From the IMG/VR virus record IMGVR_UViG_3300045806_000094, positions 1-24,474 of that record: a stretch of 24,474 nt of DNA. The stretch is one strand, 5' to 3'. The translations under genes were made by a program, and so were the position numbers. Origin of the DNA: a virus. This document shows positions 5,113 through 23,200 of the stretch, piece after piece (position 1 is the first letter of the stretch; each line of letters starts with the position of its first letter). The notes below the pieces were generated by a model, which did not search any database, was not told the origin of the DNA, and saw nothing but the letters and a program-made list of their open reading frames with translations.

Positions 5113-5113
5113 C

Positions 5114-6984: not shown

Positions 6985-6985
6985 T

Positions 6986-9900
6986 ATGGCCGCAAAGCAG
7001 CCTGTGAGCGTCGAGCGCGGCGATCACGTCTATGTCGCTCATCCCAAGCGCGGGGTGATCGCAGGGCGCGTCCTGGCGCATGGCAAGGACGGCATGACGC
7101 TGAAATGCGATCAGGGCCAAAAGCACAAGGTCGATTACCAGCACTACCTTGGCCACAAGGCGCGCGTCTCGCCGGCGGTCGATGTGATTGATCAGGGTGT
7201 GGACGGCGCGATCGTGCGCGATGCGTTCGGCCGCCGGAAATTTGTGGCGGGCCTGCAATCCGAGCCGCCCGCCCAGCCCGCCCCGGCCCCGGCCAAGAAA
7301 GATGATCCGCTGCTTGATGCGGCACCGATGGAGAAAGCGATGTCCACCCAGCCCGTAATCCTGTTCCTCAAGGCTGGCACGGTGGCCAATCGCCCCGGCC
7401 TGCAGCTGAAAGACGTCACTGACAAGGCCGGGCACCAGACCAAACGCTGGACCAAAACGACCAAGGATCAGCCCAAGGGCGATGAGCCGGGCGCGGCCGA
7501 CAAGCCGACGATGCACCACGGGCAGACGGTCGCGTTCCGCCACGGTGATGTGCAGGGCACCGGGAAGGTGGTGGCCAGCGGCGCGGATGGTGTGACGGTG
7601 CAGGATGAGACCGGACGCGAGCATCAAGTGCGCCACCAGCATTTGATCGGGCCGCATGATCCGGCTGCACCCGGCGGCGAGGGCCAGCCCGCAACACCAG
7701 CGGCACCAGATGCCGCGGCCAAGCCGCAGGATGCTAAACCTGGGCAGAAAGGCGGCGGTGATGGCGGCGGCAATGATGGTTCTGTGCCACCAGACTCGTT
7801 TAATGCGAAGGCTTATAGCAAGGATTATATTGACCTAAGCGTGACGCCTGCAGACATTCTCAAAGCATTCCCGCCAGATACCGCAACCAAGATGGATGCG
7901 ATCACTAAGAAGTTGGCTGCGACGCCGCAAACCATTGAGACATACAAGAAGGATGGCAAATACACGCCTGAGCGCTTGGAGCTGCACAAGAAGATTGTCG
8001 CACATATTTTGTCGCCAGATCGGCGCAAAGCGGCAAAGCCGCCAGCTGGCACTGACCCGACCTTCACCATTCTTGGCGGGCGCGGCGGATCGGGTAAATC
8101 TTGGTTCGCCGGTAAGGTTTATGATCCGACTACGGCTATCGTTTTAGATGCTGATGAAATCAAGCAAATGCTGCCCGAATACGAGGGGTGGAATGCTGCG
8201 ACTGTGCATGAAGAATCCGGCGATTTATTCGATCAAATCACTGCGGAAGCGCAAGGTTTGGGTCTTAATATCGTTCATGACGCAACCATGAAAGCGGGCC
8301 ATAAGGCCGTAAAGCTGGTCAAGGGCTTCAAGGATGCCGGGTATCGGACGGAGGCACATTATATGTTTCTGCCGCCTGCTGAGGCCGCTACGCGCGCTGT
8401 GCATCGTTTCCTTGGGCCAACTCAGCGTTTTGTCCCGCCGGGCATCGTGTTATCGAATACCACCAATGAACCCAGCTTTGATGATGTCAAGGCGCTTGTA
8501 GATAATTGGTCTTTCAGAGACAATAATGTGGCAAGGGGCGAACAGCCCAAGCTGATATCAGAAAGTCAAGGCAATGAAACTGACAGAGGAAAATCAGGAC
8601 TACATGGATTGCCGTCCGCTGGGTCGCGAGACGGGGATAGATCTGGGTCCGGAGATGGAAGCGGAATTCGCAGAGATGAAAAAAGCGGAGGCGGCTCGAA
8701 GGGCAGCACGCTTGGCAAGTCGCTCGCGGACGGCGGCCGAGTAACACTACTCCTCAAAGCTGCCGCTCCAACGGCAAAGCAGATCGAGGCCGGAAACTAC
8801 CCCAAGGCGCACCGCTCATTTCAGGGCCTGCCGGTAACGATTGAAAACCCGGCGGGCTCAGTGCGCTCTGGCGTATCCAGGGGTGGCCATCGCTGGTCCA
8901 CCATGATGAAGCACGACTACGGCTACATCAAAGGCACGCTGGGGTCTGATGGCGATCACTACGATTGCTATGTCGGCCCGCATGAGGATGCGACGCACGC
9001 CTATATCGTCGACACAATGAAGCCGCCGCACTTCGCCGAACTAGACGAGCAGAAGGCCATGCTCGGCTTTGCCAGCGAGCAGCACGCGAAAGAAGGCTAT
9101 CTGGCCCATTACGACAATCCGGGCTTCCTCGGCAAAATCACGCCGATGCACATGGATGAGTTCAAGGCCAAGGTTCGCCAAACGCGCGAGCCGGGCCATA
9201 CCGGCATTCTCAAGGCGCTCGGCAACAAGGTGGCCATGTTCTTCAAGGCCATCATTCCCGGCGGGGCTCAGGCTGATCTGTTCGCAATCCCGGTGCCGGT
9301 GAAGGCGCACACCACGAAAGACGGCACGGCCGTGGCCGCGCATACTGCGATCCGGCACAAGAAGGCCCCGGCGCCAATGTCAGCCGAGATGATCGACTCA
9401 ATCGCCAAAGCGGCGGAAGACCATCACGCCGCACGCCGCAAGAGCATGCGCAACCCGCCATTCGTGAGCATTGCGGCGGCATTAGGCGGCTACGCGCATT
9501 CGGTCGGCCTCAAAATCCATGACGATCATGAATTGCCGATCATCAATCGCATGATGGAGCTGCGCAAGATGGCCAGCGCCACGCTTGCGCCGCACACGCC
9601 GCAACCCGGCGGTGATCCGCGCAATGTGTATCCAGCCGATGAGCTGGTGCCAGCCGAGCATGGCTTGCCGGAGGGATCGACTTTCAAGGAGGGCAGGGGG
9701 CAGCTTGGCGCTGGGAAATGGTCTGTCGTGTTTCCCGGTGAGCGATTCAGCACCAACTACATGCCATCTAAAGCAAAGGCGATTGCAGAGGCGCACGGCA
9801 TTGTGAAAAGCCGCGCCGCTCAGGCTGAACGCAAAGCCGATCAGGATGCCAAAGACCGCGATCTTGTGGTTCGCCTGCTCAATGGTGGCATGGCCGATGA

Positions 9901-11362
9901 GCAAGACGTGAAGCGCCTTGGCCTTCGACCGGGCAAGGCGGCACGCTTCGGCGAGATGACTGGCATTGCTGAACGCCTGTTCGGAATCAGTTCGCGCAAG
10001 GCGCGTGAGGCTTTCGGCGATGCCATGTCTGTGGGCTATAGCGATGGGGGCACCAAGATTGACTATGTGAGCCCGCGTAAGGGGCTGGCCAATGCTGCGC
10101 GCTGGGCGGCGAAGAATGCCACCCTGCCGCGCGAGGTATTGGACAAGGTGGAAAGCGCATTCGGCGTGAAAATCAGCGACGATGGCAAAACGGTCAAGCT
10201 GAGCGCATCGGAGCAATTGCAGGCCCTCGAAAAGCAAATGAAAGACCTAGAGGCTGAGGCACCCAACGGCCGTGATTTTGTGGGTGATGAGCCTGGGTTT
10301 AAAGCGGCATTTGCTGGGTATCGTGCCAAACAGAATGCTATTCGCTGCGAGATGGAAAAGCTGACCGCTGCGGCTGTAGCTGAGCGCAAGGCTAAGCGCG
10401 CGGGTGCGCTGACCGAGGCTGATGCCACCAAGCGCGCTGAGGATACTCCATCGCCAGACATGAAGCACTTCTACGTCTCGGCCATTGATGGTGCGAAGCG
10501 CCACCTCGTCGCCGGGCCATATGCCTCACAGCAAGAGGCTGCCGATCACGTCGAGCACGTCCGCAAGCATGCCGACAAGCAGGATGGCCGCGCGCACTTC
10601 ATGGCCTGGGGCACGGCTGGCAGCACTGAGCCGATGAAAACCCCGCTCGGCGCAAACTGGAAGCCTGCGGATTGGCGTGATGAGGATAACTGGCACGCTC
10701 GCACGCAAGCGCGGATGAAGACCCTGCCAGAAGAATCGCTGCGCTATATTGTCAAGGATGCGAGCGATGCCTCACGCGCGCTGGATAGCGTTTCCTCGGC
10801 CAAAGCTGGCCAGTATGCCGATGAAGCCTCGTATGCCCAAATGGAGCTGAATGCCCGCGCAAAGGCTAAGGTTACGGCTGGCGACGATGAACATTCGGCT
10901 GCAGCGCGCAAGCTCTATCAGGATTATGCGGCGCTTGATCAGGGCAATACGAAAGAGCGCGCCAAGATCCTGCAGCGTGTTCGCACCCTTGCAGCCAAAA
11001 CACCGGCCGATCATAAAGCAGTCATGACTCTCGATGTCGTGGCAACACGCGCGGGCACGATGAAACCTCTGCAATTTGCTCCGGCATCTGATGCACCCGC
11101 CAAGGCTGAGCCGCGCATCATGCTGCCGGTGGCCAAGCCCAAGCTGACCGAAGGCTTCATCGCCAAGGTTTATCATGGCGACGATGTGCATACGACCGAG
11201 ATCCACGAAACTCGCGAGGCCGCCGCCGCTGCTGCCCTGGCGGCAATGCCCAAGGCCAAAACTGCTAGCACCTCAGTCGCGCGCAATGGACGAGACACAT
11301 ACGGTAATCTCCAGTCCCACAAACGCCCCTACAACCCGGCGGATGATGAGGATGACGAATAA
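6986..11362 (+). CDS. Giant polyvalent protein: SH3-like repeats, zeta kinase, pyrophosphatase-like domain
   Basis: The gene encodes 1458 residues; GGGGG stands just before the ATG. Domains in order: two related SH3/KOW-like repeats (about 12-58 and 179-223); a Gly/Pro linker; a zeta-toxin-type P-loop kinase (about 268-530) with Walker A GGRGGSGKS at 364-372 and LDADE at 387-391; a Ser/Gly/Asp-rich stretch; a pyrophosphatase-like domain as described in polyvalent proteins (about 595-745, SDGDHYDCYVG at 654-664); the shared K-A-I-I-P-G-G module (749-795); and several unnamed alpha/beta domains, including one starting FYVSAIDGAKRH near 1161. Polyvalent proteins beside portal and MuF genes are thought to enter the cell with phage DNA. 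The zeta part is clearly lower in GC than its flanks. Residues 119 (an in-frame ATG) and about 586 start L-F-L-K-A-like segments that may mark old gene boundaries. Confidence 0.85.
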   Translation: MAAKQPVSVERGDHVYVAHPKRGVIAGRVLAHGKDGMTLKCDQGQKHKVDYQHYLGHKARVSPAVDVIDQGVDGAIVRDAFGRRKFVAGLQSEPPAQPAPAPAKKDDPLLDAAPMEKAMSTQPVILFLKAGTVANRPGLQLKDVTDKAGHQTKRWTKTTKDQPKGDEPGAADKPTMHHGQTVAFRHGDVQGTGKVVASGADGVTVQDETGREHQVRHQHLIGPHDPAAPGGEGQPATPAAPDAAAKPQDAKPGQKGGGDGGGNDGSVPPDSFNAKAYSKDYIDLSVTPADILKAFPPDTATKMDAITKKLAATPQTIETYKKDGKYTPERLELHKKIVAHILSPDRRKAAKPPAGTDPTFTILGGRGGSGKSWFAGKVYDPTTAIVLDADEIKQMLPEYEGWNAATVHEESGDLFDQITAEAQGLGLNIVHDATMKAGHKAVKLVKGFKDAGYRTEAHYMFLPPAEAATRAVHRFLGPTQRFVPPGIVLSNTTNEPSFDDVKALVDNWSFRDNNVARGEQPKLISESQGNETDRGKSGLHGLPSAGSRDGDRSGSGDGSGIRRDEKSGGGSKGSTLGKSLADGGRVTLLLKAAAPTAKQIEAGNYPKAHRSFQGLPVTIENPAGSVRSGVSRGGHRWSTMMKHDYGYIKGTLGSDGDHYDCYVGPHEDATHAYIVDTMKPPHFAELDEQKAMLGFASEQHAKEGYLAHYDNPGFLGKITPMHMDEFKAKVRQTREPGHTGILKALGNKVAMFFKAIIPGGAQADLFAIPVPVKAHTTKDGTAVAAHTAIRHKKAPAPMSAEMIDSIAKAAEDHHAARRKSMRNPPFVSIAAALGGYAHSVGLKIHDDHELPIINRMMELRKMASATLAPHTPQPGGDPRNVYPADELVPAEHGLPEGSTFKEGRGQLGAGKWSVVFPGERFSTNYMPSKAKAIAEAHGIVKSRAAQAERKADQDAKDRDLVVRLLNGGMADEQDVKRLGLRPGKAARFGEMTGIAERLFGISSRKAREAFGDAMSVGYSDGGTKIDYVSPRKGLANAARWAAKNATLPREVLDKVESAFGVKISDDGKTVKLSASEQLQALEKQMKDLEAEAPNGRDFVGDEPGFKAAFAGYRAKQNAIRCEMEKLTAAAVAERKAKRAGALTEADATKRAEDTPSPDMKHFYVSAIDGAKRHLVAGPYASQQEAADHVEHVRKHADKQDGRAHFMAWGTAGSTEPMKTPLGANWKPADWRDEDNWHARTQARMKTLPEESLRYIVKDASDASRALDSVSSAKAGQYADEASYAQMELNARAKAKVTAGDDEHSAAARKLYQDYAALDQGNTKERAKILQRVRTLAAKTPADHKAVMTLDVVATRAGTMKPLQFAPASDAPAKAEPRIMLPVAKPKLTEGFIAKVYHGDDVHTTEIHETREAAAAAALAAMPKAKTASTSVARNGRDTYGNLQSHKRPYNPADDEDDE
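7790..8745 (+). other. Low-GC zeta-toxin insert within the polyvalent gene
   Basis: Three hand-counted 60-base lines in this stretch (7801, 8101, 8221) have 42-43% GC, against 73% at 7261 and 57% at 9121. The segment begins after a Gly-rich linker, contains the whole zeta-type kinase and ends where the main frame returns to an L-L-L-K-A segment. The borders are approximate. The simplest reading is a zeta gene acquired by transfer and fused in frame. Confidence 0.6.
8574..8744 (+). CDS. Possible 56-residue overlapping gene downstream of the zeta kinase
   Basis: In a different + frame from the host gene, ATG 8574 to TAA 8742-8744 encodes a protein with normal composition: MKLTEENQDYMDCRPLG, then GPEMEAEFAEMKKAEAA, then a basic helix. 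The main frame over the same bases gives Ser/Gly/Asp/Arg-rich low-complexity sequence, which is what an out-of-frame reading tends to look like. It could be a small partner gene once following a separate zeta gene, now a relic or still expressed. A purine-rich AGAAAG lies eight bases before the ATG, a weak ribosome binding site. Confidence 0.35.
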   Translation: MKLTEENQDYMDCRPLGRETGIDLGPEMEAEFAEMKKAEAARRAARLASRSRTAAE

Positions 11363-11799
11363 TGCCGACGCCTGTTCGTCTCCTCACCACGGCTGAGTTT
11401 GATGCCCGCGAGGCGCGGCGCATGGCGGAAGGTCTGACTTTCCTCGAAGCGTTCGGCCCAGGCGCGATGTATCATTGCCCGTGGTATCATGACCCGGCAG
11501 ATGCGGAAGACATGGCGGATTTAGATCTTGGCCATCATGCCGGGTTCCTATCCAGCCACTACCTCACCACCTGGGCGCGCAAGCGGTCTCCGCTGATGGT
11601 GCTCACGCCGAACGGGCGTATGTGGTGCGTCGATCAGGTCAGCACAAACGGGACGGGCTGGATCGTCACCGGTGATGCGCCGATCATCACCGCAATGCCG
11701 TCCATCGTCGTGCCCGGCTATCACGGTTGGCTTCGCGATGGCGTGTTCAGTGACGACATTGAGGGGCGCGGCATATCGGGTGAAATGCAGCTCGGGTGA
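11362..11799 (+). CDS. Conserved-looking phage protein of unknown function
   Basis: The gene encodes 145 residues, with the start overlapping the polyvalent stop (TAATG). Visible blocks are LTFLEAFGPGAMYHCPWY, SSHYLTTWARKRSPLMVLTP, then MWCVDQVSTNGTGWIVTGDAP and PSIVVPGYHGWLRDGVFSDD. The sequence is aromatic-rich and beta-prone with no membrane segment, like a small domain found as an unnamed phage protein. Its last codons lie in a perfect 16-base tandem duplication, which appears to have changed the C-terminus and separated it from the next gene. Confidence 0.7.
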   Translation: MPTPVRLLTTAEFDAREARRMAEGLTFLEAFGPGAMYHCPWYHDPADAEDMADLDLGHHAGFLSSHYLTTWARKRSPLMVLTPNGRMWCVDQVSTNGTGWIVTGDAPIITAMPSIVVPGYHGWLRDGVFSDDIEGRGISGEMQLG

Positions 11800-11807
11800 A
11801 ATGCAGC
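11776..11807 (+). repeat. 16-base perfect tandem duplication at a gene end
   Basis: TCGGGTGAAATGCAGC occurs twice in a row, at 11776-11791 and 11792-11807. With a single copy, the upstream gene would end in Met-Gln-Pro-stop and its TGA would overlap the next ATG as ATGA, like most junctions here. The second copy puts an earlier stop nine bases before that ATG. Confidence 0.9.
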
Positions 11808-11808
11808 C

Positions 11809-13182
11809 ATGAAGCCGCTCATTCTTTTCCTCAAGGCGATCATCCCCGGCGGGGCATCTGGTGACCTGTTTTCGGTCACGGTGCCTGTCCATGGCTACAC
11901 CACCAAAGGGGGCACTTATGTGGCCCCGCACGTTGCTGAGCGCCTAAAACGGCCCGACAATCCAGTTGCACCCGCACCAAAACCATTGCAGGATACACCC
12001 ATCGGACGGCATCAGGCCGCCGAAATTGGCAAGAGGCCAGAAGCAATGCTCCAAATCACACCTGCCAAATCAGGCAAAGGCACCTACCTCAAAATCCCGG
12101 ATGACGCTGCGGACCTAACGGCTGCATTCAAGGCGGAATTTCCGACCGCTGATTATTTCAGCGATACCAAAAAATGGTATCTGCGCGGCAGCACGGCCGA
12201 AAAACGCCTTCGCAAATGGGCTGAGACTCAATCGGAAGCATTGGCGGGAGTTGCGGCGCGCGAGGCTGAAAAGCAGTCCGCGGCCAAAGCCGCACAAGCT
12301 GAGGCTCAGAATGCCAAGCAGGCAGCCGCTGATGCCGATGCAGCGCTCGGTCAACTCACAAACGAGCATGTCAACGTGACATCTGCTGGGTCGCAATTAT
12401 CGGTGCGGTTCCCGTATGCGGTTGGTGCAGTCTCCATCATCAAGGCGGTGCCGGGAGCGCGATGGGATAATGCCTCCAAGTCATGGCTGGTGCCGCCGAT
12501 TGAGCGTCCAGCCCTTCGTGTGGCAATCGCTCGCATCAATGCCGCCTTAAAGCCGATCTTGGCGGCAGAGAAGGCCGAGGAAGATAAAAAAGAAGCAGAC
12601 CGGCAGGCGATTCGCGCACGGCGCTGGCCGATGCTGCTGAGTGATGGCCTGCGCATCGGACAAGTTATGCGCCTGCATGGCAAGGTCCAGGCGATCGAAA
12701 GCGTCGGCAAACGGTTCTACGTCAACGAGGACATGCCGAGCCTCTACGGCCACCTCCTGGGGAGTGAGGGCGAAGCAGTGGCCTATGCCTATATGCGCGA
12801 TGCGACCGAGGCTGAGCAGGCTGCATTTGAAGCGGATGAGCAGGCCAAAGCAGCACAGGCTGATGCTCGACGTGCTGCTGCTGCTGCGATACGTTCGGTG
12901 AAAGAAGAATTCAACGCCGCCTCTGTTCGCCCAGCCAAGCTGGATGAAGCACCGAAGGGTGAAACGGTTTTGGAGGAAAACCCGCGCTCGGCAATCTATG
13001 GCGGTGGCGTGCGGTGGGTCTATGGTGATGGCGTGCTATGGCAGTTGCGCGGCAATAGCGCTGATGGCGATGATTGGAGCGCTAACAATTTGTCTGGCAC
13101 GATTGCAACATGCGTGTTCGAGCCGCTTGCCGGTGAACTGGCTGAGCGTCTGCGCGCTGCCATGAAACAGGGCGCGATGTAA
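11809..13182 (+). CDS. Protein with shared N-terminal module and HARP/DUF5710-like repeats
   Basis: The gene encodes 457 residues. Residues 5-47 are the shared module (LILFLKAIIPGGA, DLF, TTKGGTYVAPH). Residues about 88-140 (YLKIPDDAADLTAAFKAEF, then KKWYL) and 195-245 (LSVRFPYAVGAVSIIKAVPG, ARWD, KSWLVPP) both resemble the small strand-helix-W units of HARP or DUF5710 domains, which bind DNA in annealing helicases, primases and phage proteins. They are separated by an Ala/Glu/Lys-rich coiled coil (141-182). Residues 270-335 form another beta-rich domain, followed by a second coiled coil (335-370) and a Trp-rich C-terminal domain. There is no helicase motor, so a DNA-binding or DNA-protecting role is inferred. 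It lies between two unknown small genes in the head region. Confidence 0.72.
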   Translation: MKPLILFLKAIIPGGASGDLFSVTVPVHGYTTKGGTYVAPHVAERLKRPDNPVAPAPKPLQDTPIGRHQAAEIGKRPEAMLQITPAKSGKGTYLKIPDDAADLTAAFKAEFPTADYFSDTKKWYLRGSTAEKRLRKWAETQSEALAGVAAREAEKQSAAKAAQAEAQNAKQAAADADAALGQLTNEHVNVTSAGSQLSVRFPYAVGAVSIIKAVPGARWDNASKSWLVPPIERPALRVAIARINAALKPILAAEKAEEDKKEADRQAIRARRWPMLLSDGLRIGQVMRLHGKVQAIESVGKRFYVNEDMPSLYGHLLGSEGEAVAYAYMRDATEAEQAAFEADEQAKAAQADARRAAAAAIRSVKEEFNAASVRPAKLDEAPKGETVLEENPRSAIYGGGVRWVYGDGVLWQLRGNSADGDDWSANNLSGTIATCVFEPLAGELAERLRAAMKQGAM

Positions 13183-13854: not shown

Positions 13855-13860
13855 TGTCAC
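13847..13860 (+). promoter_or_regulatory. Recurring intergenic motif, copy 4 (before MuF gene)
   Basis: CGTCGTGATGTCAC overlaps the stop codon of the HTH gene and begins 23 bases before the MuF ATG, as at copy 3. CGTCGTG (13847-13853) can pair with CATGACG (13869-13875), which includes the start codon. No Shine-Dalgarno sequence is visible for this gene. Confidence 0.55.
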
Positions 13861-13869
13861 GCATCCTGC

Positions 13870-16137
13870 ATGACGCTCCTGATCGACATCGGCCCGGTTC
13901 CCGAGGCGCATTGCAACGACTGCCTTGAAGATCTGTTCAAGGCCTTGGCGGTTGACCCGCTGGCCGATGAGGCGACAATCTGGGATCACCACCAGAATCC
14001 CTACCTCACGGCTCTGGTCGAGGAGATGACGCTGCGCTTTCAATCCATCCTTCAAGCGATGCAGGGCGCGATGAGCCGCTGGCTATTCGGCGATACCGTC
14101 GAGCATGCTCTGGAAAAGGCGCTTGGTGATGAGCCTGTCAGCCCCGAGGAATGGCTGCGCTGGACCCCGGAGGAAAAAGCCGCCGTTGAGGCGCGGCTGG
14201 CCAGTTTGCAAGAGGGCGAAATCAGCCTGGATGACTGGCTGCTCGGCTCTGAACTGCTGGTCCAGACATACCTGCCCGATAACGTGATCAAGACGCAGGC
14301 CGATTATATGACGGTCAAAGCGGCGCTGCTTGGCAAGATCCAGGCAACGCTTGCTGAGCAATCAGCCGAGGCGATCGCAAAGGCGACGTCCAATCTCCCG
14401 CCCAAGGTTGAGGAAGTGCCGGCCAAGGTGCTGACCCCTGTTGAGCGCAAGACCATCGAATTCGCGCAAGCACGCGCTGCTACCCGCATCCGCGGCGTGG
14501 CGGATGTCGCGCGCGCGCGCATGAAATCCATCATCATCGACAAGGTCGAGGCGCAAGTGATGGGCGACCCGCGCGGCAACGCGCAGCAGCTGCGCCAGGA
14601 ACTGTTCGACAATTTCGGGCAGCTCAATCGCGACTTTCGCCGCATCGCCATCACCGAGGCGGGCGAGGCTTGCAATCAGGGCTTTGTGGCTGCCATGCCG
14701 GAAGGTGACCGCGTCGAGCGGCGTGAGGCGTATCGCGGTGCCTGCGAATTCTGCAAGTCGATCAATGGCAAGTCGTTTCTCGTCGTAGCGGCATCTGATC
14801 CAAATCGCGATGGCCAGACGCAGGTATGGCCCGGCAAGACCAACGAGGGCCGGTCTGCATCACCACGCAAGCGGGTGGGCAAAGTCTTGATGGAGCGTGG
14901 CCTATCCGAGCGCTGGTGGCCAGCCGCCGGCGTGCAGCACCCGCATTGCTTCATTGACGGCAATCTACCTGTCTATACGTCTTCTGGTTGGAAACCAATT
15001 TCGACGATTGCCCTTGGTGATTTGGTTTTGACGCACCTGGGGCGGTTTATGCCTGTGACGTGGGTTCTGGCTGACACATTCCACACTGGGCAAGTCTTTG
15101 GTGCAGTGACAAAATTCGAGGGACGCAATAAGGCGCGGTTGCCAGCATCAACGGGCGAACACCCTATCCGAACGGAACGCGGCTGGGTGCCATCAAGTGA
15201 ACTGGTATCTGGGGATCGCTTGATTGCCCTCGCAAAAATATGTCCGACCTGCACGCATCCATTCGTCAATTTGAAATTTCCGAATGTGCGCTATTGCAGC
15301 CTTGGGTGTGTGGAAAGGGCTGGCATCAATCAATTTTCAACGGATGATCCTGCGGCCTTGGCTGCCGCCAAGGCAATCACTGGGGAGGCAAATACAAGGC
15401 GTCTACGCGGGATGACAGTTGAGCAGCGTGCCGCTCTTACTGCACCAGCACGGGCCATCATGCGCGAACGCGGCTATGCGCACCTGCTTGATCCCGCTAG
15501 TCGCCGACGCGGCGCGAAAACATTGGGCGCGAACAATTACCAGCCGAGTGAAACTGAAATTCAAATCGCTGAGGCGTTGGTTGGTATGGGTTGTCAGCCG
15601 CTTTTGCAGCACCGCGTTGAGCAAATTCGTGAGAACCGATTGGGCAAAAAACGCCATTGGTGGCTTGATCTTGCCATTCCAGATCAGCGGATCGCAATTG
15701 AGATTGACGGGGAGCCGTGGCATGGGCGCATGGCCAATGGGCGAGATGATGTGCGTGATGCCGATTTGCAGGAGCAGGGCTGGACGGTATTGCGATTTGA
15801 CGCCAAGCGCGCTGCATCTGATCCCTATGCCATTGCGGCTGAGATAGCGCGCATCGCCATGAACCATGATGGAGCCTATGTTTTCGGCTCTGTCGAGGTA
15901 GTTGAACCAACATCAAGGTGGGTGAAAAACCGCCGACTCTATAATTTTGCCGTCGATGAAGATGAAAGCTATGTCGTTGGTGGCGGCTATGTGGTTCATA
16001 ATTGTCGCGGATCTTGGACCCGACTCAGCGCAAAGCCGCCGGAAGTCAGCCAAGAGTTTGAGGATTTCCTGCACCGCACATTCGCTGAAATGTATCCGTT
16101 GCTGGCCACCAAGCCTGCGGAGCGCACCCCGGAATAG
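13870..16137 (+). CDS. Mu gpF-like head morphogenesis protein interrupted by an intein
   Basis: The precursor has 755 residues; the mature protein would have 403 after splicing. The N-terminal 200 residues are helical. The MuF-type domain follows: FRRIAITEAGEACNQGF, then REAYRGACEFCKSINGKSF, then HPH-[intein]-CRGSW, where the H-P-x-C-R motif is the conserved end of the domain. MuF proteins act in head assembly, bound near the portal inside the procapsid. The intein is inserted inside this most conserved motif (Cys360 to Asn711), and Cys712 is the first residue after it. The C-terminus is short and charged. The gene starts ten bases after motif copy 4 and its stop is directly followed by copy 5. 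Confidence 0.85.
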   Translation: MTLLIDIGPVPEAHCNDCLEDLFKALAVDPLADEATIWDHHQNPYLTALVEEMTLRFQSILQAMQGAMSRWLFGDTVEHALEKALGDEPVSPEEWLRWTPEEKAAVEARLASLQEGEISLDDWLLGSELLVQTYLPDNVIKTQADYMTVKAALLGKIQATLAEQSAEAIAKATSNLPPKVEEVPAKVLTPVERKTIEFAQARAATRIRGVADVARARMKSIIIDKVEAQVMGDPRGNAQQLRQELFDNFGQLNRDFRRIAITEAGEACNQGFVAAMPEGDRVERREAYRGACEFCKSINGKSFLVVAASDPNRDGQTQVWPGKTNEGRSASPRKRVGKVLMERGLSERWWPAAGVQHPHCFIDGNLPVYTSSGWKPISTIALGDLVLTHLGRFMPVTWVLADTFHTGQVFGAVTKFEGRNKARLPASTGEHPIRTERGWVPSSELVSGDRLIALAKICPTCTHPFVNLKFPNVRYCSLGCVERAGINQFSTDDPAALAAAKAITGEANTRRLRGMTVEQRAALTAPARAIMRERGYAHLLDPASRRRGAKTLGANNYQPSETEIQIAEALVGMGCQPLLQHRVEQIRENRLGKKRHWWLDLAIPDQRIAIEIDGEPWHGRMANGRDDVRDADLQEQGWTVLRFDAKRAASDPYAIAAEIARIAMNHDGAYVFGSVEVVEPTSRWVKNRRLYNFAVDEDESYVVGGGYVVHNCRGSWTRLSAKPPEVSQEFEDFLHRTFAEMYPLLATKPAERTPE
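14947..16002 (+). mobile_element. Intein with Vsr/DUF559-like endonuclease (352 residues)
   Basis: The intein runs from Cys360 to Asn711 of the precursor. Block A is CFIDGNLPVYTSSGWKPIS. Block B is STGEHPIRT, with the T-x-x-H signature. Block F/G is LYNFAVDEDESYVV followed by VVHN and then Cys. All residues needed for class 1 splicing are present. Between the splicing halves are a Cys4 zinc-finger-like segment (CPTC, then YCSLGC), an Arg-rich helix and a nuclease-like domain: SETEIQIAEALVGMG, then WWLDLAIPD, IAIEIDGEPWH, and DLQEQGWTVLRF. This resembles the PD-(D/E)xK fold of Vsr/DUF559 proteins, not the usual LAGLIDADG enzyme. Local GC is lower (45% in line 14941, 48% in line 15241), fitting recent mobility. 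Confidence 0.85.
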
Positions 16138-16177: not shown

Positions 16178-16184
16178 CGTGTGC

Positions 16185-16910
16185 ATGGCCTATGTGCCAA
16201 ATGCGGCGCGCACGGTGGCAGCGCCGGCGTCCGTATCCTCTCCAGAGTATCCCTTGTGGTTCCCCGCCAAGTCTCCGACTGAGCGGCTGGATTACTCTGT
16301 GGATTTCAGCGCACCGGTGGGCGCGTCAAATGGTGATAGCATCGCCTCGGTGACGCTCTCACTTGATGGCGGTGCGTCCTATAGCAGCATGCAGTGCGTG
16401 CTGATCCAGACAGCCAACAACGTGGTTTCGTTCTTCCTTTCCAGTGGCCAGGAAGGCGAAACGCACAACGTCACTGTCGACTGCCTGATGCAATCGGGCG
16501 ACGTGATCTCAGCGACTGTCCAACTTTTGGTCACTGCCCTGTCAGGCGCTGCAGCACGCGCTGCGGTCAGCCCGCCCCGTGGGCAGCCAGGACCGGCGGG
16601 TGCCACCATTACGGCGGGCAGCATCACCCCATCTGGCCACCTGGTCTTCACCAAATCTGATGGATCGTCTCTCGACGTTGGCTATGTCGTCGGGCCGCCG
16701 GGCACGGGTGCCACCGTCACCGAGTTCGTGTTCTCGCAGCCCACTCCAGCGACATCGTGGGTGATCAACCACACCCTCAATTACCACCCGGCCGTGCGTG
16801 TTGTGGATAGCGCGGGAACGCTCGTTGAGGGCGATGTCACCTATCCCAATGCCAATACCGTTGTCCTCACCTTTCCGGCCGGCTTCTCCGGCACGGCCTA
16901 TCTCTCGTAA
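16185..16910 (+). CDS. Tail-fibre-associated protein
   Basis: The gene encodes 241 residues from ATG 16185 (AGGG seven bases upstream). Residues 15-120 are beta-rich (YPLWFPAKSPTERLDYSVDF, then SIASVTLSLDGGASY) and resemble an Ig-like phage virion domain. A short Pro/Gly collagen-like linker (PPRGQPGPAG) follows. The C-terminal 65 residues (FVFSQPTPATSWVINHTLNY, then DSAGTLVEGDVTYP, then VVLTFPAGFSGTAYLS) match the pattern of a fibre-end domain widespread in tail fibres. It is the first gene of the fibre block and lies 15 bases before the next fibre gene. Confidence 0.75.
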   Translation: MAYVPNAARTVAAPASVSSPEYPLWFPAKSPTERLDYSVDFSAPVGASNGDSIASVTLSLDGGASYSSMQCVLIQTANNVVSFFLSSGQEGETHNVTVDCLMQSGDVISATVQLLVTALSGAAARAAVSPPRGQPGPAGATITAGSITPSGHLVFTKSDGSSLDVGYVVGPPGTGATVTEFVFSQPTPATSWVINHTLNYHPAVRVVDSAGTLVEGDVTYPNANTVVLTFPAGFSGTAYLS

Positions 16911-16925
16911 CCGGAGCACCCCGTC

Positions 16926-18044
16926 ATGGCCCGCAAATTTCTCGCTGGTATTGATCTGACATTTCAGCAATTGCTCAATGCAGTGCTGCAGAATTTGGCA
17001 ACTGCGCCATCCTCGCCGGTTGCTGGCTTGCATTACTTTGACACGGCGCTGGGCACGGGGCGGATTCATAACGGCACTGCCTGGGTAGCGACGGACGCCA
17101 GCAAGCTCGTCGGCACAATCCCGATGACGGCTTTGACCGTCGATCCCACCAACCGCGCGAACCATACCGGCACGCAGCTGGCCGCGACGATCAGTGATCT
17201 TGGCTCGACGGTGCATGGCTATTCGCTGTCGAGCTTTGCGGCACCCACCGGCAACCTTGCTATGGGCGGCTACACGCTGACTGGGCTTTCCACCACGCCC
17301 AACGCTGTCGGGCAGGCAGCAGAATACAGCTGGGTTATCAGCCAGATCCAAAGTGCAGCGGCGGGCATCTCGTCGAAAGCCCCTGTCACGGCGGTTGCTA
17401 CCACCAATATCGCGACATTGTCGGGCCTGCCGACCGTTGATGGCATAACCATGACGGCAGGTCAGCGTCTGTTGCTGCCTGCGCAGACCACCACGACGCA
17501 AAATGGTGTCTATGCGGTCGCTGCTGGCGCGTGGACGCGAGTCACCACCGAAGCGTCCAACGAAATGGACCCCGGCGCAACTTGGCTTGTCCTGCAGGGC
17601 ACCACCAACGGCGGCACGCTCTGGCGTATGGCCACCACGGGCACGATCACCGTGGGCACGACGGCTATCAGCATCGTTCAGTTCTCGACGGGCACATCGT
17701 TCTCAATCGGCTCAAACTCGGCGCTGAACTACACCGCTGGCGTCCTGACTCTCACGTTGCAGTCAAATTCGGGTTTGGTGCAGACGAGTTCGGGCTTGGC
17801 TGTCGATACCTCCGTGGTGGCCAAGAAGCAGCTCGCCACGATCACGGGGGATGGAGCCACCACCAGCTTCAACATCACGCACTCTCTGGCGGCAGGGACA
17901 TCTGTGATGGTGCAGATGATTGAGACAAGCACTGGCTCAACCGTCGATACCGACATCACCCGCACGAGCGCCACCAACGTCAACGTCTCGTTCCCGACCG
18001 CGCCCGCTGTGAGCAAGGTCTACAACGTGATCGTCATCGGCTAA
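16926..18044 (+). CDS. Tail fibre protein
   Basis: The gene encodes 372 residues; GGAG lies nine bases before the ATG. The N-terminus (MARKFLAGIDLTFQQLLNAV) is a common attachment-type start. NHTGTQLAATISDL (near residue 80) is a typical tail-fibre repeat motif. Residues 160-260 (VDGITMTAGQRLLLPAQTTT, QNGVYAVAAGAWTR) form the beta domain found in many phage fibres. The C-terminal 70 residues (TGDGATTSFNITHSLAAGTS, VMVQMIE, then VNVSFPTAPAVSKVYNVIVIG) form a beta-sandwich end domain, probably in the receptor-facing or trimerising part. Ser, Thr and Ala dominate, as in trimeric fibres. Confidence 0.82.
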   Translation: MARKFLAGIDLTFQQLLNAVLQNLATAPSSPVAGLHYFDTALGTGRIHNGTAWVATDASKLVGTIPMTALTVDPTNRANHTGTQLAATISDLGSTVHGYSLSSFAAPTGNLAMGGYTLTGLSTTPNAVGQAAEYSWVISQIQSAAAGISSKAPVTAVATTNIATLSGLPTVDGITMTAGQRLLLPAQTTTTQNGVYAVAAGAWTRVTTEASNEMDPGATWLVLQGTTNGGTLWRMATTGTITVGTTAISIVQFSTGTSFSIGSNSALNYTAGVLTLTLQSNSGLVQTSSGLAVDTSVVAKKQLATITGDGATTSFNITHSLAAGTSVMVQMIETSTGSTVDTDITRTSATNVNVSFPTAPAVSKVYNVIVIG

Positions 18045-18058
18045 GCTGGAGAGCGCTG

Positions 18059-18454
18059 ATGTCGAACTCCTATTTGAGTGCAGGGTTTAGGACGGCAGTT
18101 TTGGCGCTGCTTAGTGCTGGCACCGCTTATATCCCCAAGCGCCCGGTAACACCCGCCTACGCAGGCGCGCTCACAATTAATTGGGTTTCGGCTGACATCG
18201 CGTATCTGACGCTCACTGGAAACTGCACCATCACCAACAGTGGTGCGGTCGATGGGCAGGGCGTGTTGCTCTACGTCACCCAGGATGGCACGGGTTCACG
18301 CTCAATCTCCTTCGCCAGCGGCACCGCGTTCAACACCACGATCCCGAGCATCACGCTCTCCACCGCCGCAGGGGCGACCGACATGATCCAACTCATCTAT
18401 CGGGCCAGCACCGGCAAATACAACATCGTCTCTTTCGTGCAAGGGGTATCGTAA
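18059..18454 (+). CDS. Small beta-rich virion protein
   Basis: The gene encodes 131 residues; GGAGAG lies about six bases before the ATG. The centre (LTLTGNCTITNSGAVDGQGV, then VTQDGTGSRSISFASG, then LSTAAGATDMIQLIYRASTG) is a beta-strand repeat often seen in fibre and decoration proteins, where such units form a beta helix or cap. There is no signal peptide. It lies within the fibre block, so a structural role at the tail tip is inferred. The next gene starts immediately after the stop. Confidence 0.65.
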   Translation: MSNSYLSAGFRTAVLALLSAGTAYIPKRPVTPAYAGALTINWVSADIAYLTLTGNCTITNSGAVDGQGVLLYVTQDGTGSRSISFASGTAFNTTIPSITLSTAAGATDMIQLIYRASTGKYNIVSFVQGVS

Positions 18455-18937
18455 ATGTCTGGAACTACCGCAGTTTCGCCAATGCCAATGTCTGCGCCGA
18501 CCGTCGCGGATTTATATACTCAGGTCCGCAACGCAGGCATCAATTGCCGGTCGTATTGTTTGTCACTGCAATCAGCAATTGCAGCGGGAAACGTGTCACC
18601 GACCGCCTATCTCAACACGCTATCAGCGGCTGGCGGATTGCTCGTGCTAGCCGAAGAAGTGCAAGCGAACACCACGCTAGGCGCGGCCTTTACGGCCTAC
18701 ACACAATCGCAAACCGGGCAATCATCCTTGGATGTGGCTGCGTCGTTTTCGGCGTCAATGGGCGTGCTGTCTGCCTTGGTCACGTCAATGGTCGCCGCAT
18801 ATCCGGTGGACGCGTCGGGGCATTTGCTCGACCGCATGTTTGGCTCCAATGGCCAGGTGGTATTTGTTGCGATCCCGGCAGGCTCGCTCTCTGGCGTGTC
18901 CGCGCAAATCGGCGCGTGGCTGGCGACGGTGAGCTGA
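18455..18937 (+). CDS. Unknown 160-residue protein of the fibre block
   Basis: The ATG directly follows the TAA of the previous gene. The protein is Ala/Ser/Thr-rich and mostly helical: VADLYTQVRNAGINCRSYCL, then an Ala-rich middle, then a C-terminal hydrophobic part (VVFVAIPAGSLSGVSAQIGA). Two Cys lie close together near residues 31 and 35. I recognise no family. Its place between fibre genes suggests a virion or assembly role, for example a small baseplate or chaperone protein. Confidence 0.6.
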   Translation: MSGTTAVSPMPMSAPTVADLYTQVRNAGINCRSYCLSLQSAIAAGNVSPTAYLNTLSAAGGLLVLAEEVQANTTLGAAFTAYTQSQTGQSSLDVAASFSASMGVLSALVTSMVAAYPVDASGHLLDRMFGSNGQVVFVAIPAGSLSGVSAQIGAWLATVS

Positions 18938-18941
18938 TGCG

Positions 18942-19871
18942 ATGACGAGCACTGTCGTATTTCTCACCACTACCGGGACCGGCTTATCGTGGGTAGTCCC
19001 TTCGGGTGTTACGTCGATTAAAGGCGAGGCTATCGGTCCCGGCGGCAACACGAACGCCAATGGCGGCGGCGGCGGCGGCGGCGGCGCATATGCGGTTAAC
19101 CCATCAATCGCTGTCACACCCGGCCAGTCGATCTCATACAATATCGGTGGAGGCGGCTCCGGTATTGACACGATGTTTTTTAACACGTCCACGCTAGTGG
19201 CAAAAGCGGGCGGTGCGGCTGACGCATCAGGCAATGGCGGCGCGGGCGGCTCAGCGTCGTCGTGCGTGCCATCAACAGGCGCATTCTCAGGTGGTGCGGG
19301 GGGCAACTCTCTACAGGGCGGTGGCGGTGGCGGTGGGTCCGCTGGTCCTAACGGAGTAGGACAAAACGGTGGATCGACCCCAGCCCCGCTAGGAAACTCT
19401 GCGGGTGCGGGTGGTGGTGGGTCCAACGGGGGCAGTTCGACGGCAGGCGCGGGCGTCGCATCTGGCGGCGGAAATGGTGGTAACGGCGGCAACGGCAACG
19501 CCGGTTCGGGTGGGGGTGCTGGCTCGCTTAACAACACTACCTTTCCAGGCAGTGACGCGACGGCAAATTCTGGCGGCGGGGGTGGTGGGGGTAATATTGG
19601 TAGGACGAGCCAAACCGCAGGGGGTAGCGGTGCCGGTTCTATCGCTTGGACCTCAACGCTGGGAGCAACTGCCGGTCCAGGCGGTGGTGGTGGCGGCGGT
19701 GGCGGATTTACGGGTTCTGCTGCGGGCGGCAACGGGGGTGCCTATGGAGGTGGCGGTGGCGGCTCACTGCTATCTCTTAGCACCCCCGGCCAAGGGCTGA
19801 TCGTCATTACCTACACGCCCCTCGTTGTCAGCGGGCCGACGAACCCTTCAAACTTCCTAATGGGTTGGTGA
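18942..19871 (+). CDS. Polyglycine-rich receptor-binding-type protein
   Basis: The gene encodes 309 residues. The first 30 residues (VVFLTTTGTGLSWVVPSGVT, SIKGEAIGPGG) match the short beta domain that starts many glycine-rich phage proteins. About residues 35-280 are runs of Gly with Asn, Ser and Ala, including eight Gly in a row (43-50) and nine near the end. The C-terminus returns to normal sequence (GQGLIVITYTPL). In the T4-like phage S16 adhesin gp38, such Gly runs form a packed polyglycine-II sandwich that carries variable host-binding loops; a similar fold is inferred here. The long Pro-rich minus-strand frame over it is a shadow of these Gly codons. Confidence 0.75.
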   Translation: MTSTVVFLTTTGTGLSWVVPSGVTSIKGEAIGPGGNTNANGGGGGGGGAYAVNPSIAVTPGQSISYNIGGGGSGIDTMFFNTSTLVAKAGGAADASGNGGAGGSASSCVPSTGAFSGGAGGNSLQGGGGGGGSAGPNGVGQNGGSTPAPLGNSAGAGGGGSNGGSSTAGAGVASGGGNGGNGGNGNAGSGGGAGSLNNTTFPGSDATANSGGGGGGGNIGRTSQTAGGSGAGSIAWTSTLGATAGPGGGGGGGGGFTGSAAGGNGGAYGGGGGGSLLSLSTPGQGLIVITYTPLVVSGPTNPSNFLMGW

Positions 19872-19873
19872 CC

Positions 19874-20224
19874 ATGAGCACTTATCTCTCCCAAGTCAGT
19901 ACAGCGAGCGCCACCCTCGGTCGAAATTTCGATGAGTGGATCAACGCGCTATTTGGTGGCAAACCGGACCAAACATGCAGTGAGCGCACCGCGCTGGCCG
20001 CACAAGCAGGCAGCATACCCGGCTGCATCGTGTGTGCGCTGCTCTCCGTGCTGGTGCAATGGGGGCACTGCAAAGCGACCCTTGACCCCAATGGACCACC
20101 AACGCCTGCCAGCGCCTACGTGCGGGCTGGGCTGTGCTTTGTCCTGCTGATGGGTGCGGTCGGCAACGGCCTCTTGCTGCTGATCAGCTGGACCGTGTCT
20201 CACATGCTTTCAGTGATCGGCTAA
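19874..20224 (+). CDS. Small membrane protein with two hydrophobic segments
   Basis: The gene encodes 116 residues from ATG 19874. An N-terminal amphipathic part contains NALFGGKPDQTCSERTALAA, a pattern I associate with small unnamed phage proteins that share an L-F-G-G-x-P-x-x-T stretch and a G-H-C motif (here WGHCKAT). Hydrophobic segments lie at about 48-63 (IPGCIVCALLSVLVQW) and 84-108 (RAGLCFVLLMGAVGNGLLLLISWTV). The location after the fibre genes would suit a lysis role such as a holin, but no endolysin is next to it and the N-terminal pattern is not holin-like. Confidence 0.65.
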   Translation: MSTYLSQVSTASATLGRNFDEWINALFGGKPDQTCSERTALAAQAGSIPGCIVCALLSVLVQWGHCKATLDPNGPPTPASAYVRAGLCFVLLMGAVGNGLLLLISWTVSHMLSVIG

Positions 20225-20233
20225 GGCTCATTT

Positions 20234-20247
20234 TGTCGTGATGTCAG
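20234..20247 (+). promoter_or_regulatory. Recurring intergenic motif, copy 6 (before giant methylase/helicase gene)
   Basis: TGTCGTGATGTCAG lies nine bases after the stop of the membrane-protein gene. It differs from the consensus at the first and last base. As at copy 5, a hairpin covering the next ribosome binding site starts at its last base. Confidence 0.5.
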
Positions 20248-20276
20248 GCTCGCTCTTGGTAAGACCGGAGCGGGCC
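20247..20276 (+). promoter_or_regulatory. Leader hairpin covering the ribosome binding site of the giant gene
   Basis: GGCTCGCTC (20247-20255) pairs with GAGCGGGCC (20268-20276), giving nine pairs with one G:T. Inner GGT/ACC pairing extends the stem. The GGAG at 20267-20270, seven bases before the TTG start, lies in or at the edge of the stem. A T-rich stretch follows (ATTGTTGCTGTTTTT), so a weak terminator or attenuator is an alternative reading. Confidence 0.45.
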
Positions 20277-20277
20277 A

Positions 20278-23200
20278 TTGTTGCTGTTTTTGAAGGCTAA
20301 GATTGCGGGCGGCGCGCGCGCTGATCTGTTCTCAACCACCGTTCATGTCGACGGCTATACGACGAAAGAGGGCACCTATGTGGCCCCGCATGAGTCGATC
20401 CGGCACAAAGCCCCAACCAAGGCAAAAGCCCCGCCGGCGCAAATCTCCCTGTTTGACAATCCGCTGCCCGATGAGCATGCGGCCAAGGTTGAGTTCCACG
20501 CGCAGGAGCCCGAAACCACCGGGCCGCTCATGGCCGATCTGCCCGACGATGCGGCGCTGATCGAGAGCGGCGGCAAGTGGCTGGTCGAGATAGGCGAGCA
20601 GCGCACCGAACGCTTCGCCACCCAGCGCGAGGCGGTGGAAGCGGCGCGGGCAATGGTCGCGGCAAAGCCAGAACCTGATGCGCCACCCATGCCAGAGCCA
20701 CCGAAACAACAGCCCGGCGTGACAGTATCGCCTGAATTGGAAGCGTTTTTGCCCGGTATTACCGAGGCTGCGCGCCAATTGGCCAACACGCTTATGCCCA
20801 AACACTTGGTCAATTTGATTTTGGCGGCAGACCAGACGCAGCCCAAGGGGCGGATTGAGTCACCTCATACGCCGCTCGAATACGGGATGACGGCCCCGGT
20901 CGAGCCCAAAGGGAAGGGCGAGGATTTCGTCATCCAAATCAACAAGCTCGATGTCTATGGCAAAGAGCGCTCGCGCGCGAGCTGCTGGGACACGGTGTTG
21001 CATGAGTTCGGCCATGCTTTTCAGATGGCACAATTCCAGGCGGCAGATCGCGAGACAAAGGCAGCGATCGTCAGTCAGTGGGAGCGCAGCGTCAAATCCA
21101 ATCAGGAACATGAAGACAATCTAATTCAGGTCAAGAAGTGGATCATCGACGGCGAGCCGATGAAACACATTGAGGACAAGGCCGCCCGTGAGCACAGCCT
21201 AAAGCGCAATGGGCGCTATTTTGCCCAATTCGAAGAATGGTTCGCTGAGCGCTTTTCGAATTGGATGGCCACACGCGAGCAGGATTCTTCGCCGATCGGC
21301 ACGTTCTTTGGACAGTCCATGCTGGTGATGCGCTCGGCCATTTCCAAGGCCGCCAAACTGCTCGGGCTGAACATCAAGCGAGGCGAGTTTGAGCGCTTCG
21401 CTGATGCGGCCTGGGAGGCCGGAACGCCGCCAGCACCCATCATGGATTGGGGCGTCTCGGCTGGCGTCACCAAGGGCGAGCGGCGCCGGATCAACGCCGA
21501 GTGCGTCGACATCCTCACGCGCAAAACCGACGATCAGATCACTGATGCTGACCGCGCCACGCTCGCGCGCTATTCGGGCAACGGCGGGTGCGGTGACTCG
21601 CTCAACGAATTCTACACCGATCCGGCCGTAGCGCGGTCCATGTGGGATATGCTGGCCTCGGCGGGTTTCGCGGGCGGCGCGGTGCTAGAGCCCAGCTGCG
21701 GCACGGGCGTATTTCTCCATACTGCGCCAGCCAATGCGCGTGTCACCGGTGTTGAGTTGGATGGCGTGTCGTCACGCATCGCCCGCCTGCTGCACCCGAC
21801 GCATGAGGCGCAAGATGCCAGCCTGGAGCGGTTTGCAACCACGGATGGCCGGAAATTCGCGGCCGTCATCGGCAACGTGCCGTTCGGCCTGCGTGGCGAT
21901 CTGATCAAGGACGACAAGCCAGACCTTGCCACGGCTGAGCGGTATTTCGTCGATACCAGCTTGGACAAGCTGGAGGATGGCGGCTTGCTGGCATTGATCG
22001 TGCCGACTGGCATCATGGACTCATCCTCCGGCCGCGCGTTTCGTGAGCGGATCTTGCGCAAGGGGGAATTCCTCGGCGCGATGCGTCTGCCCAACACCGC
22101 GTTTGAGGCATCGCACACTGAGGTGACTTCTGACGTGATCCTGATGCGCAAGCGCCCGGCGGATATCGCTGGCGCGCTGCGCACGGTCTCGCAAGAGCAG
22201 CTGCAGGCGCTGGGCGTTTGGGAGCCTGATTTCCTGTCGGGTGGCTACTTCACCGATGGCACCAACGCGGGTTCGGTGCTCGGGACGCTTGAACCAGGCT
22301 GGCGGGCCAAGGCTGGTATGGGCGCGGATATCACCGTCACGGGCAGCATGCATGGCGTGCCGGCGGCGCTGGCGGCGTGGCGGCCTGAACCGTCCAAAGG
22401 TTCGCCCGACATGCAGCAAATCCTCGCCAGTTTTGGAGATGATGAGGAAGGCAAAAAGCGCGCGCTGAATGCCGCCATCAAGCCCGCCTATCAGCTGGCC
22501 AAGGTGGGCGATGTCAAAGTGGTCGACGGCGTGCGCTACATTTTGCAGGGCGACCCGCCGCGCTGGCACCGCACTGAGGAAGCCACCAGCGCCGCCGTGC
22601 TGGATGCATGGCCGCTGGCTGAGATGATCAATGATCTGCATGAGGGGAGCACGAAAGACCCGGCTTATACCCGCGCGCAGCTGATCGAAGGCCTGGATGA
22701 GTGGGTCCGTAACCACGGCTCTCCGGTATCCAATCGCGATTTGATCGCCTGGATTTCGGCGCCGGTTCAGATTGACGATAATCCCCTGCCTGTCGGTATC
22801 GCGCAAAAGATGGCGCGCATGCTCGGCGCGGTCTCGTCTGATGGCAGTTATTCGGATTTGGTAACTGGGCGGGCGCATGATGGAGCTGAGGCTTCCATTG
22901 ATACGACGGCCATCAAACTCGCGCTGGAAAACGGCAGCTTCTCGCCCGATGAGCTGGCTGGCCAGATGGGGCTTGATCGCGAATCTGTGCTTGACCACCT
23001 GATGGCCGCGCCGGGCTATGCGGTGCTGCCTGATGGCAAGCGTTGGACAACGCTGGATGATTATCTGTCGGGCGAGCTCTGGCCAAAGCTGGATGAGGCC
23101 CGCGCTGCGCTGTCAGATGAGGCGCTGTCTGCGGAAATTCGGACCAAGCTCGAAACGCAGGCTGCCGAACTTGAAAAGACCATTGCGCCGCAATCGCTGG

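What the first reader, a model, noticed from the sequence alone, without database searches (positions are those of the whole stretch)
9230..20415. A shared ~45-residue module joins three otherwise different giant phage proteins
Residues 749-795 of the polyvalent protein, 5-50 of the HARP-like protein and 2-46 of the DarB-like protein share one pattern. It reads hydrophobic-F-x-K-A-x-I-x-G-G-A-x-x-D-L-F, then V-x-V-x-x-x-T-T-K-x-G-T-x-V-A-x-H, then a basic end. The three proteins share nothing else obvious, yet all lie in the virion/polyvalent region. In two of them the module is exactly at the N-terminus. It could be a common tag for capsid entry, portal docking, co-injection or proteolytic maturation. 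I know of no named function for it.
Basis: partly seen in the sequence, partly recalled or inferred. Interest (0 to 1): 0.8.

Follow-up and report, generated by a model that had tools for sequence, protein, structure and literature searches.

The report
Cleavable packaging leader on phage cargo proteins
Three unrelated giant proteins of this phage share a short leader that looks like a cutting tag for the phage's own head protease followed by a small folded clip; the same cutting motif sits in the capsid, scaffold and protease of related phages, so the leader probably marks proteins that are loaded into the virus head, trimmed there and injected into the host.

Summary
Three ~45-residue copies (51-70% identical) sit inside the polyvalent protein and at the N-termini of the HARP-like and DarB-like proteins; nothing else is shared. 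The module is composite. Part 1 is a disordered hydrophobic leader ending in [L/F/M]-x-K-[A/S]; part 2 is a confident beta-hairpin. Part 1 matches the predicted cleavage motif of the head protease of this phage group: L-x-K-[A/S]-L is invariant in the capsid protein N-arm, repeats about 7 times per scaffold, recurs in a disordered linker of the protease, and is enriched in head but not tail or replication proteins. The protease model matches T4 gp21. Leaders share the scaffold sites' P3 preference; chance matches elsewhere in the same proteins do not. Leader-bearing DarBs occur with this capsid type in 20/20 records, P1-type DarBs in 0/15. Best reading: a cleavable capsid-loading leader, analogous to T4's capsid targeting sequence but with K, not E, at P1; internal copies suggest polyvalent proteins are cut into pieces. 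Cleavage and packaging are inferred, not shown.

The parts
9230..9364 (+). module copy 1, inside the polyvalent protein directly after the InPase domain (aa 602-734): VAMFFKAIIPGGAQADLFAIPVPVKAHTTKDGTAVAAHTAIRHKK
11809..11961 (+). module copy 2, N-terminus of the HARP-like protein: MKPLILFLKAIIPGGASGDLFSVTVPVHGYTTKGGTYVAPHVAERLKRPDN
20278..20415 (+). module copy 3, N-terminus of the DarB-like protein (TTG start, GGAG upstream): MLLFLKAKIAGGARADLFSTTVHVDGYTTKEGTYVAPHESIRHKAP
20332..20406 (+). beta-hairpin half of the module (DarB-like aa 19-43, pLDDT 93-95); residues 1-18 before it are disordered in the model
20287..20298 (+). candidate protease site F-L-K|A in copy 3
11827..11838 (+). candidate protease site F-L-K|A in copy 2
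9239..9250 (+). candidate protease site F-F-K|A in copy 1
9206..9217 (+). candidate site I-L-K|A-L at the end of the InPase domain (resembles MIKAL at the C-terminus of stand-alone PHB04 InPase)
8750..8761 (+). candidate site L-L-K|A just before the InPase domain of the polyvalent protein
8711..8722 (+). candidate site L-G-K|S-L before the InPase domain
7364..7375 (+). candidate site F-L-K|A between the SH3-like N-part and the Zeta/AAA part of the polyvalent protein
7328..7339 (+). candidate site M-E-K|A, 12 residues before the previous one
6943..6954 (+). candidate site F-G-K|A-L at the C-terminus of the portal protein (PHB04: LQKAFGL; Jeremy: MQKAFGL)
5416..5427 (+). candidate site M-L-K|A in the portal N-region (PHB04: FAKAL)
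13933..13944 (+). candidate site L-F-K|A-L near the N-terminus of the MuF-like protein
6974..11362 (+). polyvalent protein, 1462 aa: Zeta_toxin aa 355-492, InPase aa 602-734, region homologous to PHB04 gp49 aa 1137-1284
11809..13182 (+). HARP-like protein, 457 aa (HARP domain of SMARCAL1 by profile, weak)
20278..24474 (+). DarB-like methylase-helicase, cut off by the end of the record

Best explanation
The module is a leader for proteins loaded into the phage head. It has two parts. The first ~8 residues end in [L/F/M]-x-K|[A/S], the predicted recognition motif of the phage's T4 gp21-type head protease; this protease is inferred to cut the capsid protein, scaffold, portal, itself and the leaders at K|A or K|S during head maturation. 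The second part is a small basic beta-hairpin that would stay on the mature cargo and may contact DNA, scaffold or shell. At an N-terminus (HARP-like, DarB-like) cutting would remove the hydrophobic leader. Inside the polyvalent protein the same sites lie before and after the InPase domain, so cutting would separate a fused polyprotein into pieces that related phages encode as separate leader-bearing genes. Shown here: module, composite structure, motif statistics, co-occurrence with head type. Inferred: that the bond is cut, that the leader is needed for packaging, that the cargo is injected, and that the window's phage has this protease (the fragment lacks its capsid and protease genes).
For: (a) L-x-K-[A/S]-L is invariant in the N-arms of about 40 capsid proteins whose preceding residues vary freely, and L-x-K-A-L is in the homologous SPO1 capsid. 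(b) Blind scan of all 400 P1-P1' pairs in head proteins: KS and KA rank first and second (350 vs 69 and 428 vs 111 expected); scaffold 229 sites vs 25 expected, protease 314 vs 46. The SPO1 scaffold has 11 such sites. (c) Genome-wide: PHB04 head and cargo 35 vs 15.4 expected, tail 12 vs 9.1, rest 27 vs 27.8; Jeremy head 17 vs 4.4, tail 15 vs 12.6. (d) 97% of DarBs and 92% of partner helicases have a site in the first 60 aa, vs 10% of other ORFs. (e) Leader sites use L/M/F and avoid V/I at P3, as scaffold and protease sites do; chance matches in the rest of the same proteins do not (p 4e-5 and 2e-7 vs 0.77 and 0.86). (f) Leader-bearing DarB goes with this capsid type in 20/20 records, P1-type DarB in 0/15. 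(g) The protease model matches only T4 gp21 significantly (E 3e-5), and its disordered linker carries a near copy of the capsid N-arm. (h) InPase is preceded by a site in 15/18 internal and 15/22 N-terminal occurrences; the two from phages PBC5 and Rb1 lack it. (i) Yersinia phage fHe-Yen8-01 ART and NUDIX-like proteins, far from the head genes, bear leaders and are annotated as particle-associated. (j) P1 DarB is loaded by an N-terminal signal of 10-30 residues (PMC9024508).
Against: No cleavage has been measured in this phage group. The window has no capsid, scaffold or protease gene; these come from relatives. P1 DarB's loading signal has no sequence similarity to this leader. Sequences within families are related, so enrichment counts are not independent events. 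MuF sites do not show the P3 preference. The particle-associated list of fHe-Yen8-01 is broad (52 of 118 proteins tested) and its link to N-terminal sites is weak (Fisher p 0.035, partly due to the head proteins). Conservation of K-A could also reflect docking without cutting.
Confidence: 0.62

Rival explanations
1. Docking peptide that is never cut: the hydrophobic leader binds scaffold, shell or portal and loads the cargo, like encapsulin cargo-loading peptides; K-A/S is conserved for binding.
For: Leader is very hydrophobic at P6-P4, more than scaffold or protease sites need; P1 DarB loading needs no known cleavage (PMC9024508).
Against: P1', P1 and P3 preferences match those of scaffold and protease sites in unrelated contexts; sites also lie between domains and at C-termini of portal and InPase, where a loading peptide is not obviously needed.
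Confidence: 0.2
2. The module is simply the N-terminal domain of this DarB family, copied into two neighbouring genes by recombination in one subclade, with a function in the host cell (for example nucleic-acid binding by the basic hairpin) and nothing to do with the head.
For: The full IPGGA.xDLF form is shared by DarB, HARP-like and polyvalent proteins only in the window's closest relatives (L004, L005, L034, L075); the hairpin is confidently folded and followed by a basic stretch.
Against: Does not explain why the same leader precedes unrelated helicase, InPase, HD, NUDIX and ART proteins, nor its match to capsid and scaffold sites, nor its strict link to one capsid type.
Confidence: 0.12
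3. Local gene duplication or convergence in lysine/alanine-rich proteins without function.
For: High-alanine proteins make K-A frequent by chance; whole-protein counts in DarB are not enriched (208 vs 198.5).
Against: Shuffle controls exclude composition for the module and for head proteins; the leader is kept in DarBs that are otherwise only about 50% identical.
Confidence: 0.02

Closest known systems
T4 capsid targeting sequence (CTS) of internal proteins, cut by gp21
   Same: Short N-terminal leader shared by otherwise unrelated injected anti-host proteins, loaded into the prohead core (PMC3012670); protease of the same fold as the one here (5jbl); hydrophobic P3 (T4 consensus L/I-x-E, from general knowledge).
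   Different: P1 is K with P1' A/S, not E; leader is followed by a conserved beta-hairpin; copies also lie between domains of giant polyvalent proteins.
SPN3US / phiKZ head protein propeptides cut at A-x-E by gp245
   Same: One protease cuts capsid, portal, itself and ejection proteins at one three-residue motif, serine favoured at P1' (PMC10052503).
   Different: Motif and propeptide lengths differ (20-254 residues there, about 6-9 here for N-terminal leaders).
P1 DarB N-terminal packaging signal
   Same: Same protein family (DarB), same position: first 30 residues send a reporter into the head (PMC9024508).
   Different: No sequence similarity; P1 head type and protease differ (capsid cut E120|S121, PMC9024508).
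SPO1 / phi812 (Herelleviridae) head maturation
   Same: Homologous capsid protein; K-[A/S] site in the same place; SPO1 scaffold full of [hydrophobic]-x-K-S; SPO1 protease with a copy of the capsid site.
   Different: Polyvalent cargo with leaders was not looked for there.
Polyvalent proteins (Iyer, Burroughs, Aravind 2017)
   Same: InPase, zincin, methylase-helicase and other conflict domains in giant virion-associated proteins (PMC5512222).
   Different: That paper proposes autoproteolysis by internal zincins; a shared head-protease leader did not appear in the passages read.

Membership tests
Head-protease substrate of the SPO1/PHB04 type (works like) | carries [L/F/M]-x-K-[A/S] with the subsite preferences of scaffold and protease sites | tested here: met
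Head-protease substrate of the SPO1/PHB04 type (works like) | bond after K is cut in virions | not testable with these tools
   no mass-spectrometry data for these termini; library papers gave none
Head-protease substrate of the SPO1/PHB04 type (works like) | same genome encodes the cognate capsid and protease | tested here: inconclusive
   met in 20/20 longer relatives for the capsid; the window and L004 are fragments without these genes
T4 capsid targeting sequence | E at P1 of the leader cleavage site | tested here: not met
   P1 is K in the window copies and nearly all others; works like, not a member
T4 capsid targeting sequence | sufficient to load a foreign protein into the head | not testable with these tools
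   experiment needed
T4 gp21 / assemblin-type head protease (the cutter) | fold match and conserved H and S | tested here: met
   5jbl E 2.8e-5; H71 and S138 invariant in 16 sequences; phrog_1028 4e-70
P1 DarB packaging signal | sequence similarity of the N-terminal 30 residues | tested here: not met
Polyvalent proteins | several conflict-related domains in one large protein beside portal/MuF | tested here: met
   Zeta_toxin, InPase, N6_Mtase, SNF2; portal 9e-16
Named Pfam domain | any Pfam match to the module itself | tested here: not met
   43 members scanned; the only strong match is an HD domain downstream of one copy

The most novel reading that the evidence does not exclude
Phage polyvalent proteins of this group are true polyproteins: the head protease cuts them inside the prohead at K|A/S tags between domains, so that one fused gene and several separate genes deliver the same set of injected effectors, and the tag alone identifies the cargo list of a phage from sequence.
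Probability: 0.4. Interest if true: 0.78.

Novelty: new variant of a known kind. Interest (0 to 1): 0.62.

Why it matters
How giant polyvalent and Dar proteins are chosen for packaging, and whether they are trimmed or cut up, is largely open; for P1 no consensus signal was found. A leader readable from sequence, tied to a named protease, would let injected proteins be predicted in many phages and tested with one peptide-cleavage assay. It also points to a blind spot: trypsin cuts after K, so ordinary tryptic proteomics cannot tell these maturation cuts from digestion. And it suggests a short leader for loading proteins into phage heads.

Tried and rejected
Known domain for the module: Pfam and PHROGs scans of 43 copies gave nothing informative. 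Fold search with the module model: nothing significant, best E 0.62. Close homologues by tblastn in annotated phages: none for the full 51-residue form. HARP-like protein is rare: one relative by scan, a third found in L034. P1 DarB N-terminus as a sequence homologue: rejected. Counting sites over whole DarB proteins shows no enrichment (208 vs 198.5); the signal is only in the leader, so whole-protein counts are not evidence for cargo. Portal docking: no specific evidence found. Literature proof of the K|S cut in SPO1-type capsids: not held; I recall an N-terminal sequencing result for the Listeria phage A511 capsid protein cut before a serine, but this is memory only and is not used as evidence.
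Full report
WHAT IS THERE. The window is a 24,474-base IMG/VR virus record with portal, polyvalent, HARP-like, MuF-like and DarB-like genes. Their similarity is far beyond chance: local alignment scores are 123-150 against a shuffled maximum of 57, while the rest of the three proteins scores no better than shuffles.

IT IS COMPOSITE. A search for the first six residues alone showed that hydrophobic-F/L-x-K-A recurs in the polyvalent protein near aa 133 and 595, and in relatives before HD, InPase and helicase proteins, each time followed by a different sequence. An AlphaFold2 model from 38 aligned copies has residues 1-18 disordered (pLDDT about 53-59) and residues 19-43 as a confident beta-hairpin (pLDDT 93-95). 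The hairpin half (V.V.GYTTK.GTYV.PH) is a general N-terminal feature of DarB-like proteins in related phages, as in MIILFRKSQLALFDAPVHVAASVRKDGTVVKPHIRIQK. The IPGGA.xDLF form of the window is a subclade variant (L004, L005, L034, L075).

THE LEADER MATCHES THE HEAD PROTEASE MOTIF. Related phages with full genomes (Bordetella phage PHB04, Pseudomonas phages Jeremy and Touem01) show the same [L/F/M]-x-K-[A/S] in capsid protein, scaffold, protease, portal and MuF. In about 40 diverse capsid proteins L-x-K-[A/S]-L is invariant while the residues before it vary freely, as expected of a propeptide. Scaffolds carry about seven sites each: 229 observed, 25 expected. In a blind scan of all 400 P1-P1' pairs over head-core proteins, KS and KA rank first and second. 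Within single genomes the enrichment is in head and cargo proteins, not tail or other proteins (PHB04; Jeremy). The SPO1 capsid is homologous, and the SPO1 scaffold has 11 sites. Thermus phage Lalka8, a distant relative, has K-A in capsid and scaffold and ELLAKAEQPALF at the DarB N-terminus.

THE PROTEASE. It belongs to phrog_1028, head maturation protease (4e-70). Its model has a beta domain (12-172), a low-confidence linker (about 175-230) and a helical C-part. The only significant PDB matches are three chains of T4 gp21. The linker contains KALEAGYATDAVGKTGGAALGMQSLD, a near copy of the capsid N-arm KALQASNYQTDVATLEGGGALTVQSLD; the capsid query itself also hits a 291-302 aa reading frame just upstream of the capsid gene in three records (E about 2e-4 to 4e-4), which I take to be the protease gene. 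This suggests self-cleavage at the same site, as reported for SPN3US gp245 (PMC10052503).

LEADERS BEHAVE LIKE REAL SITES. 97% of DarBs and 92% of partner helicases have a site in the first 60 residues (about 16 per 1000 aa) against 2.4-3.5 per 1000 in the rest of those proteins; 10% of other ORFs have one. Scaffold and protease sites favour L/M/F over V/I at P3 (p about 1e-28 and 1e-21 against background). Leaders do too (p 4e-5 and 2e-7), but chance matches in the remainder of the same proteins do not (p 0.77 and 0.86). MuF sites do not show this preference.

CO-OCCURRENCE. Among 35 longer viral records, the SPO1-type capsid is present in 20/20 with leader-bearing DarB relatives and in 0/15 with P1-type DarB. 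P1-type DarB N-termini lack the hydrophobic leader; 5 of 21 have a motif match somewhere in the first 60 residues. DarB-like proteins of Vibrio phage VvAW1, Sinorhizobium phage PBC5 and Xanthomonas phage Rb1 also lack the hydrophobic leader, and none of these phages is among the 60 of 62 capsid hits listed.

POLYPROTEIN HINT. The InPase domain is a separate leader-bearing gene in PHB04 and others, and is fused inside the polyvalent protein in the window and L004 with the leader kept at the junction. A site lies within 40 residues upstream in 15/18 internal and 15/22 N-terminal occurrences; some of the internal ones reflect mis-set starts. The window's polyvalent C-part (aa 1137-1284) matches PHB04 gp49, a separate gene that begins MSTVILFLKSHVAGY. 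Fusion keeps N-termini by itself, so this supports but does not prove cutting.

VIRION EVIDENCE. In Yersinia phage fHe-Yen8-01 the ART protein (MLVLAKALNQ) and a NUDIX-like protein (MLKAQIKGYMRRDGVYVKPH), encoded far from the head genes, are annotated as phage particle associated. That list is broad, and its link to N-terminal sites is weak (p 0.035).

COMPARISON WITH THE KNOWN. T4 internal proteins are a diverse set of anti-host proteins sharing only a capsid targeting sequence (PMC3012670). P1 DarB is loaded by its N-terminal 10-30 residues, with no consensus found among Dar proteins (PMC9024508). Iyer et al. place InPase, methylase-helicase and related polyvalent proteins in virions and propose zincin autoproteolysis (PMC5512222). 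The present case works like the T4 leader but has K at P1 and a hairpin, and it extends to sites between domains: a new variant of a known kind.

LIMITS. No cut has been measured. The window lacks capsid and protease genes. Sequences within families are related, so z-scores overstate independence; the P3 control, the 20/20 vs 0/15 split and the recurrence in unrelated protein families are the stronger arguments.

Noticed in passing
13870-16137 (+), about aa 357-720: The MuF-like head gene carries an in-frame intein-like insertion (Hint_2 E 4.9e-5) with a DUF559/Vsr-like endonuclease domain (1.5e-7); MuF proteins of PHB04, L004 and L005 lack it.
   Followed up: no
4960-5201 (+): Three tRNA genes in tandem (Met-CAT, Thr-TGT, Ser-TGA) just upstream of the portal gene.
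   Followed up: no
20278-24474, about aa 150-380: DarB-like protein has a HEFGH zincin-like stretch before the methylase; phrog_4529 and Zincin_1 match weakly.
   Followed up: no
6974-11362; L004 854-3550; L006 10258-11739: The slot after the N-terminal SH3-like part is swapped between a Zeta/AAA kinase (window, L005) and a RelA/SpoT-like region (PHB04 gp34, and by similarity L004), while the flanking leader sites stay.
   Followed up: partly
L157 10001-10891: C-terminal helical part of the head protease has weak HU/IHF-like matches (PDB 2iie E 0.11; Pfam HU-CCDC81 0.049), suggesting a DNA-binding-like fold on a head protease.
   Followed up: no
2445-3158 (+): Mom-like DNA modification protein (phrog_1384, 6e-10) upstream of the tRNAs.
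   Followed up: no
L188 9601-11771: Thermus phage Lalka8 record annotates a CRISPR array and a TnpB-family transposase next to the capsid gene.
   Followed up: no
16179-19871 (+): Several short fibre-like or glycine-rich genes lie between MuF and DarB in the window, with different ones between MuF and the HARP-like gene in L004; PHB04 has none there.
   Followed up: no
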